64,000 nt of DNA from a virus, in IMG/VR virus record IMGVR_UViG_3300049460_000121, positions 1-64,000 of that record, one strand, 5' to 3'. Under the pieces are notes generated by a model. That model was not told the origin of the DNA, ran no database searches, and saw only the letters and a list, made by a program, of their open reading frames with translations. Below, in pieces: positions 2,684 to 41,608 of the stretch. Within the stretch, counting starts at the first letter, position 1; each line of letters begins with the position of its first letter. A program made the translations under genes and the position numbers.

Positions 2684-4962
<2,279 letters not shown>

Positions 4963-31234: not shown

Positions 31235-32032
31235 TTACACCGCTTGCGCGATGTCGTTTTGCATGGTCTCGTAGGCCTTGTAGTGCTCCATCAGCCACTC
31301 ATGAGACATCGGAGAACCGTCGATACCAGCTTTCGCCAGCATGGCAGGTGCTTGATCCAGCAGGTACTGCGACCAGTTCTCGAACTTCAGCTCTTTGACT
31401 TCAGGAGCGTCGAATTCCATCCAGGCCGGAGCACTGATGTCGTCTTCACCGGAACGGAAAGCAACACCGTCAGCCAGTTGGAACACGCAGACGATAGCCA
31501 GGTGAGTACTACCCACGTCGTCAGCTGGTTCGTAGATCACGCCGATGTCGTGCATGATGCCGTATGGAGGCGGCAGCTTGGCAGCAGAAACGTCGGAGTA
31601 GTCGTAACCGACTGGTGCAGTCAGTTGCAGCTCTTCGTACAGTTCACGGTAACCGGAAGCCATAACGGTAGCCACTGGATCCAGAACGCCTTGTGGGGTC
31701 CACACGAAGTCGATGATGTCGACGTGACCGCCGAAGCCGCACGAGTTATCACGCAGGCGGGTTTCGGTACCGTTGGAACCACGCAGGTATTTCACAAACT
31801 TCTTGCCGGTGGAGTCTACCACCAACATGTACAGAATCGGGTGAACGATGCTGAGATCTTCTTCCATCGCCAGGCGGGTCTTGCAGACAACATCACCAGT
31901 CAACCCCGCCAGTACTTGCACAGGGTCCTGGATCGACAGCTTATTGACGTCGGTGACCAGTGCTGCAACAGCTGACCGGTTGAAACCGAGGATCAGTTCC
32001 TTCTTCTTCGCGTATTCCAAATGTTGATTCAT
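31235..32032 (-). CDS. Nudix-family hydrolase
   Basis: A 265-residue protein with a Nudix box G-x5-A-x7-R-E-L-x-E-E-L-x-L at residues 115-137, preceded by G-G-H-V-D. The helix metal ligands Glu133/Glu134 are present. The first conserved Glu of the box is Ala121. Long N- and C-terminal extensions flank the fold. Nudix enzymes clear nucleoside diphosphate-X compounds; the substrate is unknown. AAAGG precedes the ATG. Confidence 0.75.
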   Translation of the reverse strand: MNQHLEYAKKKELILGFNRSAVAALVTDVNKLSIQDPVQVLAGLTGDVVCKTRLAMEEDLSIVHPILYMLVVDSTGKKFVKYLRGSNGTETRLRDNSCGFGGHVDIIDFVWTPQGVLDPVATVMASGYRELYEELQLTAPVGYDYSDVSAAKLPPPYGIMHDIGVIYEPADDVGSTHLAIVCVFQLADGVAFRSGEDDISAPAWMEFDAPEVKELKFENWSQYLLDQAPAMLAKAGIDGSPMSHEWLMEHYKAYETMQNDIAQAV

Positions 32033-35019: not shown

Positions 35020-35694
35020 TTATTCGTGAGTGGTGGAGAGCTCACTGATGATGCAGATCGACCCATCACCTTCAGGCGTGGTGTCGGAGTAATCGATCTG
35101 GTTATAGACACCACCGTGGAACTGCAAGACCTGGTCGAACCAGGAGCTGTCCAGCTTCAGCGGGATCTTTGTCGACAACAGCCCTTGACAAAGCACGTTC
35201 AACGAGATCGAACCGCTGGCAGTCACGCCGATGCTGATCTTGAACGGTACGCCCAAGGGGACGTAACTGTGGATGGTGGTGTTGACGATCTCCGGATCGG
35301 CGAAGCTGGCACGGAAACCAATGGTGATCTTGCCTTTGCTCCAGAACACCTTCAACGGCGGGGTAGTGGCATCCTTGACGTGGATCTGTGCGATAACCAC
35401 TTTCTGTGCCGAGTTGACTTTGGTAACAGTCATCTCTTGTCGACTCCAGTGTTTAGTAGCACTGCCAATCGCCCAGTACTCAGGTTCCTTCCATTCGGTA
35501 CGAGTGCGCTTGGTACTCTTACTCGACGCACCCTTAGTAGGGGCGGTGAACTGGACCGCCCCGTCTTCCAGTTGCTCGACAACCCCAGGACATTCCACCA
35601 GGGCTAGCGATCCCATGAGCTCCAAGGCTACTGGGTTTGTTTCAGACACAGGGAGTGGTGTTGCGATGATGTAGTTGCTGATATCGACAAACAT
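35020..35694 (-). CDS. Alginate-lyase-like protein (polysaccharide lyase 7 type)
   Basis: A 224-residue protein with all three PL7 signatures in order: R65-T-E (substrate-binding arginine region), Q103-I-H105, and G-G-V-Y197-N-Q. In PL7 enzymes Gln, His and Tyr drive beta-elimination of alginate. The beta-jelly-roll length fits residues about 50-220. No signal peptide is seen, so it may be virion-borne or released at lysis. On a Pseudomonas host it could cut alginate in biofilm. The ATG at 35694 (AAGG) is preferred over 35724. Confidence 0.75.
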   Translation of the reverse strand: MFVDISNYIIATPLPVSETNPVALELMGSLALVECPGVVEQLEDGAVQFTAPTKGASSKSTKRTRTEWKEPEYWAIGSATKHWSRQEMTVTKVNSAQKVVIAQIHVKDATTPPLKVFWSKGKITIGFRASFADPEIVNTTIHSYVPLGVPFKISIGVTASGSISLNVLCQGLLSTKIPLKLDSSWFDQVLQFHGGVYNQIDYSDTTPEGDGSICIISELSTTHE

Positions 35695-35717
35695 GAGAGG
35701 ACCTTCAAGTAGGATAT

Positions 35718-35746
35718 GCGACATAAGTAGGGGATCGCTCCCCTAC
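35718..35746 (-). terminator. Hairpin terminator
   Basis: An 8-bp stem (GTAGGGGA/TCCCCTAC, 35727-35746) followed on the minus strand by TTATGTCG, just downstream of the GNAT gene. Confidence 0.6.
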
Positions 35747-35752
35747 CGATGA

Positions 35753-36181
35753 TTACCAAGCAATGGATTTCAGTACACGCTTCTCGTACTGGAGGTATTG
35801 CTCATCACCCTTACGGTAGACTTTACCCGTTTGGATGAATCCCGCAGCCTTGAACGACTTTCGACTTGGAGTGTTCGCGGGATCGATATACGCCCGACCG
35901 TTGCGACTCGCGAAGAAAGATTTGATGAACGTTGTCGCAATACCTTTACCGCGTTGAGCAGGATCCACGTAGATCGGACCCACCCGGTAGAAACCACTTT
36001 CCAGGCGAGGCATCGCAAAACCGATCAACTCGCTACCGTCCATGATAAGAATCATCTGGTCGGTCTTACGAGCGTACACGATGTCGCCTAGAAACCGGTC
36101 GTGACTTGCATCGGCCAGCATCTTCTTCAACGCTGGGGTGTCGTGGGTGTACTTCTCGTAGGTAATAATTTCAGACTCCAA
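35753..36181 (-). CDS. GNAT-family N-acetyltransferase
   Basis: A 142-residue GNAT protein. The acetyl-CoA motif A is V-x-P-x-x-R-G-K-G-I-A-T (about 73-85), with a preceding beta strand R-V-G-P-I-Y-V-D and a later F-K-A-A-G-F motif. The best full-length start is a TTG at 36181 inside the end of the macro-domain gene (55-base overlap). Its substrate is unknown; small-molecule or protein amine acetylation are both possible. Confidence 0.75.
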   Translation of the reverse strand: MESEIITYEKYTHDTPALKKMLADASHDRFLGDIVYARKTDQMILIMDGSELIGFAMPRLESGFYRVGPIYVDPAQRGKGIATTFIKSFFASRNGRAYIDPANTPSRKSFKAAGFIQTGKVYRKGDEQYLQYEKRVLKSIAW

Positions 36182-36954
36182 TCATAGACGTTGACCTGGA
36201 TACCGGAATTAGCGAAGACCTCATTGAGGATAGGGCGGACATCGGTCTCGTAATCCAACTGACCGGTTTCTTTGCCACACCCTACGCGTGGTAGATGGAC
36301 CTCAGTAATTCCATGAGCATCCAGGTAGTTTCGTAAACGGACGGCACTGCGATGTATTAATCGAGTGCAGGAAGCATTACGCCATTGATGCTTGGTGGGG
36401 AATAGTGCAACCCGAAAGGCTTCCTCTTGCACCACTTCCATATCGCCGGTGTTGATCTTCCCACTCTTGCACAGCCGCATGTACCGTCCAAGTGCTGTCT
36501 TGTACATGGTCCGCATGTATAGGGCAAGTCCTCTGCCATGGACACCGACCGTGTTGACTGGAATTGCTATGACAGACCCTTTGGGAGCAAGTTGTAACAT
36601 ACTCCCAGTTATGTCATTGATCACGGCACTCCTCCCTCTACAATCCAAACACACTGCCTGAGTCCTGACGCCATGTATCTCGGCTTCAAGGGGACCCTCA
36701 CAGGATGGGCATTCGGATGGAAGTGGTGGGGAAACTCTGTCGTCCATGTCGTTTGTCTCTACGAGGCTTTTAATAGCCCACGTCATTTCATCAAACTCAA
36801 CGACGTCACGTTCATCCAGTGCCAATTGCTGGTAACGGTAAGTGTTGAGGTAAATTGTGTGGTATGCACCGCCTGTTGCCATCAGCGTTACGACTGCGCG
36901 AAGGATGCCAGACGCGGTGACGTTGAAACGAATATTCTGTACCGTACCCTGCAT
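36127..36954 (-). CDS. Zinc-ribbon plus macro-domain fusion protein
   Basis: A 275-residue protein. Residues 1-75 form a small beta domain. A four-cysteine zinc ribbon follows (Cys82, 85, 102, 105). Residues about 112-265 form a macro domain: I-A-I-P-V-N-T-V-G-V-H-G-R-G-L-A near 129-144 and R-V-G-C-G near 223-227. Macro domains bind ADP-ribose or remove it from proteins, nucleic acids or signalling molecules. The architecture suggests reversal of host ADP-ribosylation or a related defence signal, but no activity is shown. Confidence 0.75.
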   Translation of the reverse strand: MQGTVQNIRFNVTASGILRAVVTLMATGGAYHTIYLNTYRYQQLALDERDVVEFDEMTWAIKSLVETNDMDDRVSPPLPSECPSCEGPLEAEIHGVRTQAVCLDCRGRSAVINDITGSMLQLAPKGSVIAIPVNTVGVHGRGLALYMRTMYKTALGRYMRLCKSGKINTGDMEVVQEEAFRVALFPTKHQWRNASCTRLIHRSAVRLRNYLDAHGITEVHLPRVGCGKETGQLDYETDVRPILNEVFANSGIQVNVYDWSLKLLPTRSTPTTPQR

Positions 36955-37063: not shown

Positions 37064-38206
37064 ATGAGTGAGTTCGGCGAAGCGATTAAAGAGTTGAAAG
37101 TGAAGGCAGACGCAGATGCCATCCCGAAAGATGTGGTTGAGCATTTCCAGGAAGAAGGCGAAGTCCTTCACGCTGAGATCAACAAAGACAAAGACCTCGG
37201 CATCACTGCTGAGAAACTGGCTGGCGTTGGTGTGTCCGTGGAATCGTTCATGGCGAACTTCCTCGAGCAAGTCTCCAACGAAAGCTGGGACGGCCGCACC
37301 GCGCGCCAGTTCGACATGGGTATCCAGACCATCCTCGGCGTCGCCGGGCTTGACGCTGCCACTGTAGGCTTCGAAGAATCGTTCGAAGCCGCTGGCAAGT
37401 TCATGGGTAAGGAAGAGCAGAAGGACCACGCTGAGAAAGGCGGCGAAGGCGTTCTCAAAAAGATCTGGGGTTTCCTGGTCAATGCGATCAAGAAGCTGGT
37501 GTCCGGCATTCAAGGATTCTTCTCTACCCTGGAGCGCATGGCTGGTTCTGTCGAGAAGATCGGCAAAGACCTTCAAGTCATGGTTAAGGGTCGTAGCTTC
37601 CGCACTGGCGAAGTAAAAGGCGCCTGGGCTCGTTACCTGCTGGTCGGCACTGGGACTGTCGGTCCGGTTGAAGCGATCAGCAAATCGTCTCAACTGCTGC
37701 AATCGATCACCGGCGCCTGGTCCAAGGACACTGCTGCTGCACTGGCTGCTGCCAAGACCAGTGGGAAACCGAAGCTGTCCGCGATCACCGCACTGCATTG
37801 GCCAATCCAATGGCCAGGCGGCACTACAATGAAACTGGAAGGTGGCGACGATGTCGGCGCTGCCAAGTTCTCCGCCAGCAAAGGCGAAGGTTCCAAGGGC
37901 AGTGCTGATGCGCTGACTCGTGTTGAAGCTGATGCGCTGGTAAAGGTCATCATCGGCTCCGCCAACATCATCCGTGGCCTGCGTACTGCGCTGAAGAAGG
38001 ACGTCGATCAGTATTCCACGATCGCCAACCAACTGGCAACGTCGCAGAACTTCAAACGCGGCGGTGACATGACTTCTGGTCGTGTAGCAGCTGGCCTCAC
38101 CAACAAGGCCCACACCGTCAACAAAGCCTGTGCATCCGTGATGCTGGACAACGTCCGCTCCGCTGTATCGCACATCAAAGCAAGTTTCGGGGGTAGTGCA
38201 GAATGA
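37064..38206 (+). CDS. Internal-head-type virion protein
   Basis: A 380-residue member of the internal-head set. S-V-E at residues 58-60 precedes a basic amphipathic stretch with V-L-K-K-I-W-G-F-L (about 130-165), then a helix/Ala-rich body. Its TGA overlaps the ATG of the paralogue at 38203, so the two are coupled. The ribosome-binding site is weak (GAGTG). Processing by the prohead protease is inferred. Confidence 0.6.
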   Translation: MSEFGEAIKELKVKADADAIPKDVVEHFQEEGEVLHAEINKDKDLGITAEKLAGVGVSVESFMANFLEQVSNESWDGRTARQFDMGIQTILGVAGLDAATVGFEESFEAAGKFMGKEEQKDHAEKGGEGVLKKIWGFLVNAIKKLVSGIQGFFSTLERMAGSVEKIGKDLQVMVKGRSFRTGEVKGAWARYLLVGTGTVGPVEAISKSSQLLQSITGAWSKDTAAALAAAKTSGKPKLSAITALHWPIQWPGGTTMKLEGGDDVGAAKFSASKGEGSKGSADALTRVEADALVKVIIGSANIIRGLRTALKKDVDQYSTIANQLATSQNFKRGGDMTSGRVAAGLTNKAHTVNKACASVMLDNVRSAVSHIKASFGGSAE

Positions 38207-40670: not shown

Positions 40671-40857
40671 GTGGAGTCCTCGATTGGTCTGGATGGTAGG
40701 TGAAGCGCTTAACCATCGGGTTGAAGGTGTGTAGGCTGATTCGCGGAGGCTGTGGCTCAGTCACGACCTTAATCCAGTCAGCCATGAATAGGGTCCACGC
40801 TCGAGCATGCTTACACTTGAACTTCGGGTGATTCGAGATCGCTGTTACTGTTCCCAT
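40657..40857 (-). CDS. Hypothetical small basic protein
   Basis: A 66-residue His/Lys/Arg-rich protein. AGGAG lies 9 bases before the ATG at 40857, which sits inside the end of the ATP-grasp gene. It overlaps the next gene by 14 bases. Function unknown. Confidence 0.5.
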   Translation of the reverse strand: MGTVTAISNHPKFKCKHARAWTLFMADWIKVVTEPQPPRISLHTFNPMVKRFTYHPDQSRTPHVPE

Positions 40858-41608
40858 CCCACTGCACTCCTATCAGTTGCTGCCAGCGGGCTGACACCAT
40901 GTCCCAGTACGTACCTTCCAAGTGGTCGCCATAGGCGCCGATGGAGAACCCATCGTTCACTTCGACCAATGCGGTCTCGCCAGTTGAAAGGACACCGAAG
41001 TCAATAGCGTAGCCTGCGGGAGAACCATCGACCTTGAACTCGAAGACAGCGCGTTCGATTTCAGCGTAGTTAGGTACCAGATCCTGCGTGCCTGCATTTG
41101 CCCACCGTACAGCGCGGACACGCCCATCGACCACGTAGACTCGCCACTCGGTTAGAAACTCCACCACGTCCGATGTAAACACCGGTTGTTGGTTAGAGGT
41201 CCCATTGAAGCGGAAGTCGTCGCTGTGTTCTGCCACGAACCCGGTGAAGCACTTCCAGCCGTCTGGCTTGATGAAGAACTTCTGGCCTTGATCGAGTAGG
41301 TACTTGGCATCCTTCAACGAACGGATGTGACCTACGTTGCGATAGAGGAGGTGATTCAGGCACAACGGGTAAGGGGTGTGTTCAACCAGTTCTTTGCCAT
41401 ACGCACGCAGCGCATGCTTCATGAACATCACACCACCTACCACCAGGTCCGTGTCCTTGAACATGAAGAACCCACGAGAGACGATCTTCTCGGTAGTCAC
41501 GACAACCTGGATGCCAAGACTACGCGCCTTGCTGGCCACGAGCTCTTCCTCGACACCCAGTCGACTGTTGCGCTTTTCGAGGACTACACGCAGCGGTTGA
41601 CCCTTCAC
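40811..41608 (-). CDS. ATP-grasp-fold protein (DUF4343-like)
   Basis: A 265-residue second ATP-grasp protein. The nucleotide-binding Lys114 is in F-F-I-K-P-D-G, E154-x-R156 follows, and the ligand set D203, E216 and N218 lies in A-L-V-E-V-N-D-G. It starts with GTG at 41608 overlapping the stop of the 41769 mini-gene (GTGA). I recall similar proteins annotated DUF4343/ATP-grasp in phages, with no known substrate. Confidence 0.72.
   Translation of the reverse strand: MKGQPLRVVLEKRNSRLGVEEELVASKARSLGIQVVVTTEKIVSRGFFMFKDTDLVVGGVMFMKHALRAYGKELVEHTPYPLCLNHLLYRNVGHIRSLKDAKYLLDQGQKFFIKPDGWKCFTGFVAEHSDDFRFNGTSNQQPVFTSDVVEFLTEWRVYVVDGRVRAVRWANAGTQDLVPNYAEIERAVFEFKVDGSPAGYAIDFGVLSTGETALVEVNDGFSIGAYGDHLEGTYWDMVSARWQQLIGVQWDGNSNSDLESPEVQV

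What the first reader, a model, noticed from the sequence alone, without database searches (positions are those of the whole stretch)
36127..36954. Zinc ribbon fused to a macro domain in a phage
A small beta domain, a four-Cys zinc ribbon and a macro domain in one 275-residue protein is an unusual architecture. The ribbon could target nucleic acid while the macro domain removes ADP-ribose. The gene overlaps a GNAT and sits in an operon with an ATP-grasp protein and a lyase.
Basis: partly seen in the sequence, partly recalled or inferred. Interest (0 to 1): 0.65.

Follow-up and report, generated by a model that had tools for sequence, protein, structure and literature searches.

The report
Ligase-derived tail on phage ADP-ribose eraser
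A giant phage carries an enzyme-like protein whose rear half closely resembles bacterial enzymes that strip ADP-ribose off DNA, and whose front half is a leftover piece of a DNA ligase, which suggests (but does not prove) that the phage uses it to clean toxin-modified DNA.

Summary
The observed protein is real: 275 aa at 36954..36127 (-), conserved at 84% with purifying selection in one other jumbo phage. Residues ~113-260 are a macro domain of the DarG/TARG1 class (NCBIfam DarG 1.5e-25, macro part only; AlphaFold macro pLDDT mostly >90; top PDB match DarG-macro with ADP-ribose; catalytic Lys and Asn conserved). The "small beta domain plus zinc ribbon" was not identified by direct searches, but its origin can be resolved: it is the OB-fold and C4 zinc finger of an NAD-dependent DNA ligase (LigA). 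In related jumbo phages the nearest macro genes stand alone, directly downstream of a ligase remnant: a full-length ligase with its KxDG site destroyed (L015), OB-ZnF-HhH (L012), or OB-ZnF alone (L014, L094, L095; PHROG DNA-ligase hits to 6.9e-21). In L014 both genes share a frame, separated by one TGA. The window and L001 carry them fused. Best reading: a DNA-targeted ADP-ribosyl hydrolase acting against DarT-like DNA ADP-ribosylation; the ligase origin is well supported, the DNA targeting and substrate are inferred. Rival: clearance of soluble ADP-ribose signals, favoured by a neighbouring SLOG gene in several relatives. New variant of a known kind.

The parts
36127..36954 (-). fused OB-zinc finger-macro protein, 275 aa
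   Evidence: ortholog L001:6001-6828 84% identical; dN/dS 0.14-0.18
36721..36954 (-). residues 1-78: LigA-type OB-fold domain (degenerate)
   Evidence: HMM of stand-alone OB-ZnF neighbours finds it at 1.4e-5, HMM of LigA plus neighbours at 2.3e-7; hhalign to the neighbours over residues 3-110, E 4.2e-7
36631..36720 (-). residues 79-108: C4 zinc finger of DNA_ligase_ZBD type (C82, C85, C102, C105)
   Evidence: all four Cys invariant in the seven OB-ZnF sequences
36175..36618 (-). residues 113-260: DarG/TARG1-class macro domain
36391..36393 (-). K188, equivalent of catalytic Lys80 of T. aquaticus DarG; with N134 (=N22, 36553-36555) and W191 (=W83, 36382-36384)
   Evidence: K188 and N134 invariant in 30 sequences, W191 in at least 90%; equivalence from the alignment to 5m31 and PMC5179494
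35753..36181 (-). GNAT acetyltransferase, TTG start, overlaps the 3' end of the fused gene by 55 bases
   Evidence: Pfam 5.5e-6; 89% identical in L001 with the same overlap
2684..4678 (-). the phage's own intact LigA (KLDG present)
   Evidence: Pfam DNA_ligase_aden 1e-70, OB 3e-26
37064..38206 (+). divergent phiKZ_IP-like internal head protein gene; similar genes lie divergently beside the cassette in L014, L016/L098, L094, L095 and L097
   Evidence: Pfam for the window gene; likeness in the relatives read by eye

Best explanation
The protein is a DarG/TARG1-class ADP-ribosyl hydrolase carried on the DNA-engaging part of a dead DNA ligase. SHOWN: its N-terminus is homologous to the OB fold plus C4 zinc finger of an NAD-dependent DNA ligase, and its C-terminus is a macro domain with the catalytic lysine and ADP-ribose-binding Asn/Gly residues in place. 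SHOWN: in related phages (L012/L013, L014, L015, L094, L095) the same two modules are neighbouring genes. INFERRED: a ligase gene beside a macro gene lost its catalytic site, was trimmed to OB-ZnF(-HhH), and finally fused, perhaps by loss of one stop codon. INFERRED: the retained OB-ZnF brings the hydrolase to phage DNA (possibly inside the phage nucleus, into which phage ligases are imported), where it removes ADP-ribose from bases or ends, reversing attack by DarT-like DNA ADP-ribosyltransferases. The confidence given is for the whole chain including the function; the ligase origin alone I hold at about 0.93.
For: Ligase origin: PHROGs NAD-dependent DNA ligase (phrog_3869) matches L012 6.9e-21, L014 2.7e-8, L094 1.5e-6, all starting at ligase position ~310, and L015 1.2e-39; the stand-alone-neighbour HMM finds E. 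coli LigA at 3.7e-10 and the fused ORF at 1.4e-5 among 2462 ORFs; the fused-only HMM's best non-self hits are exactly L095, L014, L012, L094. L015: KLDG->RYVG, BRCT lost. L014: same frame, TGA plus 3 codons between the genes. A separate scan with the OB-ZnF query returned only macro-adjacent loci, 3 of 3. Macro: top fold match DarG-macro with ADP-ribose, E 3.5e-10, TM(target) 0.80, then TARG1; K80/N22/W83 equivalents kept. Thymidine-ADPr reversal is shared by several ALC1-like-class macro domains (PMC9411070). The part kept is not the NAD-binding Ia domain, which other phages keep alone (PMC9503650). Phage ligases enter the phage nucleus (PMC13282480).
Against: No DNA-binding or hydrolysis data. 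The LigA OB loop GRTG (332-335, invariant in six true LigAs) is not kept in any cassette member, and HhH, which I know as a main DNA clamp of LigA, is absent from the fused form. OB-ZnF net charge is -6, though true LigA OB-ZnF is often mildly acidic too. A SLOG gene stands upstream in the records of L012, L013, L014, L015 and L016, a context usually tied to soluble ADPr derivatives. Phage nuclei already exclude many host enzymes. N-terminal model confidence is only about 40-74 pLDDT.
Confidence: 0.5

Rival explanations
1. The macro domain clears small soluble ADP-ribose derivatives (cyclic ADPR variants, ADPr-1''-P) made by host NAD-based immunity; the ligase remnant is a scaffold or a link to a SLOG sensor.
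For: A SLOG/DprA-like gene (phrog_768 2.4e-47) directly upstream in L012, L014, L015/L097 and L016. Iyer et al. 2022 argue that most phage Macro domains act on low-molecular-weight ADPr (PMC9503650).
Against: No SLOG relative found in the records of the window, L001, L094 and L095, which include the fused forms. No KptA in the searched records. The macro domain is of the DarG class. The NAD-binding ligase part was lost, not kept.
Confidence: 0.27
2. OB-ZnF is a protein-docking or phage-nucleus-import module that places the hydrolase at the replisome or ligase; the substrates are ADP-ribosylated proteins.
For: LigA GRTG loop not kept; the window and L001 records encode an intact LigA as well; phage ligases are imported into the phage nucleus (PMC13282480).
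Against: No partner identified; relatives without a detected ligase also keep OB-ZnF, although those records may be incomplete.
Confidence: 0.14
3. The N-terminal part is a neutral evolutionary remnant tolerated in front of an ordinary macro protein.
For: In L016 and in many phages the macro domain is a stand-alone gene.
Against: dN/dS 0.18 and four Cys kept; OB-ZnF kept beside macro in at least five related records.
Confidence: 0.07

Closest known systems
DarG antitoxin (DNA ADP-ribosyl glycohydrolase), macro domain
   Same: macro domain of the same class, Lys80/Asn22/Trp83 equivalents kept, best fold match
   Different: macro is C-terminal, no DarG C-terminal DarT-blocking domain, no DarT gene recognised beside it
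NAD-dependent DNA ligase LigA (OB-fold and C4 zinc finger)
   Same: N-terminal 112 residues correspond to LigA OB-ZnF in order and spacing
   Different: no Ia, nucleotidyltransferase, HhH or BRCT; GRTG loop lost
TARG1 and S. coelicolor SCO6735 (ALC1-like class)
   Same: same macro class; some reverse thymidine-ADPr on DNA (PMC9411070)
   Different: no OB or zinc finger; TARG1 uses a Lys/Asp pair whereas DarG keeps only the Lys; SCO6735 has neither
Phage anti-DarT factors AdfA and AdfB
   Same: phage genes that counter DarT (PMC11481870)
   Different: AdfB (ICP1 Gp145) binds DarT directly and is described as an antitoxin mimic; neither is described as a LigA-macro fusion
Solo Nlig-Ia domain of phages
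   Same: a fragment of NAD-dependent ligase kept alone in phages (PMC9503650)
   Different: the opposite end of the ligase (NAD-binding), not OB-ZnF

Membership tests
DarG/TARG1 (ALC1-like) class macro domain | macro fold with the class's closest structural matches | tested here: met
   AF2 model pLDDT mostly >90 in the macro part; top Foldseek hits 5m3e, 4j5s, 5m31
DarG/TARG1 (ALC1-like) class macro domain | catalytic Lys and ADPr-binding Asn/Gly | tested here: met
   K188, N134, G137, G140, G142, G225 invariant in 30 sequences (PMC5179494)
DarG/TARG1 (ALC1-like) class macro domain | removes ADP-ribose from DNA or protein | not testable with these tools
   needs an enzyme assay
DarG antitoxin | full-length equivalog score | tested here: not met
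   90.2 bits against a cut-off of 250, macro part only
DarG antitoxin | N-terminal macro plus C-terminal DarT-inhibiting domain | tested here: not met
   macro is C-terminal; residues 1-112 are LigA-like
DarG antitoxin | adjacent darT | tested here: not met
   no ART family among the neighbouring proteins scanned
NAD-dependent DNA ligase | OB fold plus C4 zinc finger | tested here: met
   by homology chain; a direct Pfam hit is lacking for the fused protein itself
NAD-dependent DNA ligase | KxDG nucleotidyltransferase domain | tested here: not met
   absent in the 275-aa protein; destroyed (RYVG) in the full-length relative L015
NAD-dependent DNA ligase | OB-loop GRTG | tested here: not met
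   TASG in the window, other non-GRTG residues in all cassette members
Anti-DarT factor (functional class) | rescues phage or cell from DarT | not testable with these tools
   needs co-expression with DarT

The most novel reading that the evidence does not exclude
A phage lineage has turned a decayed DNA ligase into the DNA-targeting subunit, and then the targeting domain, of a dedicated DNA de-ADP-ribosylase: first a gene pair, then a fusion. That would be a phage-made DNA-repair enzyme against DarT-type toxins, and a phage Macro domain outside toxin-antitoxin loci whose architecture points to DNA rather than soluble ADP-ribose as its substrate.
Probability: 0.4. Interest if true: 0.75.

Novelty: new variant of a known kind. 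Interest (0 to 1): 0.57.

Why it matters
Macro domains are in over half of jumbo phages, but apart from phage-encoded toxin-antitoxin systems a 2022 survey found no direct evidence that they act on macromolecules (PMC9503650). A macro domain fused to the DNA-engaging module of a ligase makes that open question testable with one protein and its natural split versions. It also shows, within one phage group, plausible steps from enzyme, to dead enzyme beside a partner, to gene pair, to fused domain.

Tried and rejected
Direct identification of residues 1-112 by Pfam, PDB sequence search and phage tblastn failed; the Sorting nexin-5 and DUF7351 hits were weak and rejected. A two-sequence AlphaFold run gave pLDDT 36 and was replaced. 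A viral-contig scan with the window LigA found no relatives, so LigA references came from E. coli and cultured phages. KptA- and Nudix-based ADPr routes were searched in the window's record and its relatives: no KptA at all, Nudix above cut-off only in G006. L104_3744_3992, a weak HMM hit, reads as a generic zinc finger and was rejected. ATP-dependent ligase as a replacement in relatives without LigA: none found. Net charge as a sign of DNA binding: uninformative, since true LigA OB-ZnF is similar. The fold searches were dominated by the macro half and did not test the OB-ZnF fold.

Full report
THE OBSERVATION. The ORF 36127-36954 (-) encodes 275 aa. A macro domain is certain: Pfam 1.8e-6, phrog_335 4.7e-19, NCBIfam DarG 1.5e-25, PADLOC DarG 3.9e-26, each confined to the C-terminal half. 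A C-x2-C-x16-C-x2-C ribbon lies at residues 82-105. One other fused ortholog was found in IMG/VR, L001, 84% identical over its whole length; dN/dS is 0.18 for residues 1-112 and 0.14 for 113-260, so both halves are maintained. The window is part of a 267-kb phage record that encodes a nuclear-shell homolog and phiKZ-type internal head proteins: most likely a nucleus-forming jumbo phage.

WHAT THE N-TERMINUS IS. Direct searches with residues 1-112 gave nothing. The clue came from the nearest macro relatives. In viral contigs with macro domains 41-48% identical the macro gene stands alone. In most of them it lies directly downstream of a gene that carries a piece of NAD-dependent DNA ligase: a full-length 627-aa ligase in L015, OB-ZnF-HhH (249 aa) in L012 (L013 has the same macro match), and OB-ZnF alone (115-138 aa) in L014, L094 and L095. 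L016 has none. PHROGs names these pieces as DNA ligase, 1.2e-39, 6.9e-21, 2.7e-8 and 1.5e-6 for L015, L012, L014 and L094; Pfam finds ligase adenylation and OB domains in L015 at 1.5e-17 and 1.8e-5.

The window's N-terminus belongs to this set. Among 2462 ORFs, an HMM of the stand-alone pieces finds the fused ORF at 1.4e-5 and E. coli LigA at 3.7e-10. An HMM of true LigAs finds L012 at 9.5e-12 and the fused ORF at 0.011; with L015 and the stand-alone pieces added, 2.3e-7. The HMM of the two fused proteins has L095, L014, L012 and L094 as its best other hits. Profile comparison covers residues 3-110 against the stand-alone set (E 4.2e-7) and residues 40-91 against LigA (E 4.3e-5). These hhalign E-values are for a single comparison.

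HOW IT AROSE (INFERRED). The L015 ligase has lost KxDG (RYVG instead) and its BRCT domain. The window and L001 records encode an intact LigA elsewhere, so the fused piece is a second, repurposed copy. In L014 the OB-ZnF and macro genes are in one frame with a TGA and three codons between them, so one stop loss would suffice for fusion. The order of events is read from present-day forms, not from a tree.

THE MACRO DOMAIN. With a 30-row alignment the macro part is modelled at pLDDT mostly >90. The closest solved structures are T. aquaticus DarG-macro with ADP-ribose and human TARG1. DarG Lys80 (inactive when mutated), Asn22 and Trp83 (PMC5179494) correspond to K188, N134 and W191; the first two are invariant in all 30 rows. 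It is not a DarG: the full-length score is far below the cut-off, the DarT-blocking domain is absent, and no DarT was recognised beside it.

FUNCTION. The most likely function is removal of ADP-ribose from DNA, because the catalytic part is of the class that reverses thymidine-ADPr (PMC9411070) and the added part comes from a DNA-handling enzyme and is not its NAD-binding part. This step is inferred. Against it: the OB-loop residues of true LigAs are not kept, HhH is missing in the fused form, and SLOG genes upstream in several relatives fit a soluble-signal role, which is the published expectation for most phage Macro domains. Phage counters to DarT exist (AdfB, PMC11481870), so the selective pressure is real, but the host of this phage is unknown.

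NOVELTY. The literature searches found macro domains as common in jumbo phages and solo Nlig-Ia ligase domains, but no ligase OB-ZnF joined to, or paired with, a macro domain. Most subscription papers and bioRxiv preprints are not covered. I file it as a new variant of a known kind.

Noticed in passing
L015:655-2538 (also L097:3155-5038): Full-length NAD-dependent DNA ligase with motif I KLDG changed to RYVG, other degenerate motifs, no BRCT; the only ligase adenylation domain found in that 243-kb record.
   Followed up: partly
L012:1155-1751, L014:1536-2129, L016:1891-2502, L097:2644-3210: Conserved SLOG/DprA-like gene directly upstream of the ligase-remnant/macro genes; not found in the records of the window, L001, L094 and L095.
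   Followed up: partly
window 35020-35724: Alginate_lyase2 gene (phrog_31475 1.2e-100) between GNAT and the 398-aa gene; absent at that place in L001, so a variable insertion.
   Followed up: partly
window 31235-32032: 265-aa protein (phrog_8902) with a stretch reminiscent by eye of a Nudix box (GHVDIIDF...GYRELYEELQL); no Pfam NUDIX hit in the record.
   Followed up: no
window 40811-41608: R2K-clade ATP-grasp protein (Pfam R2K_2 1.7e-27, R2K_3 1.5e-25).
   Followed up: no
records G004 (258 kb), G007 (188 kb), G008 (254 kb): Large phage records with OB-ZnF and macro genes but no NAD- or ATP-dependent DNA ligase found by PF01653 or PF01068; may be incomplete.
   Followed up: partly
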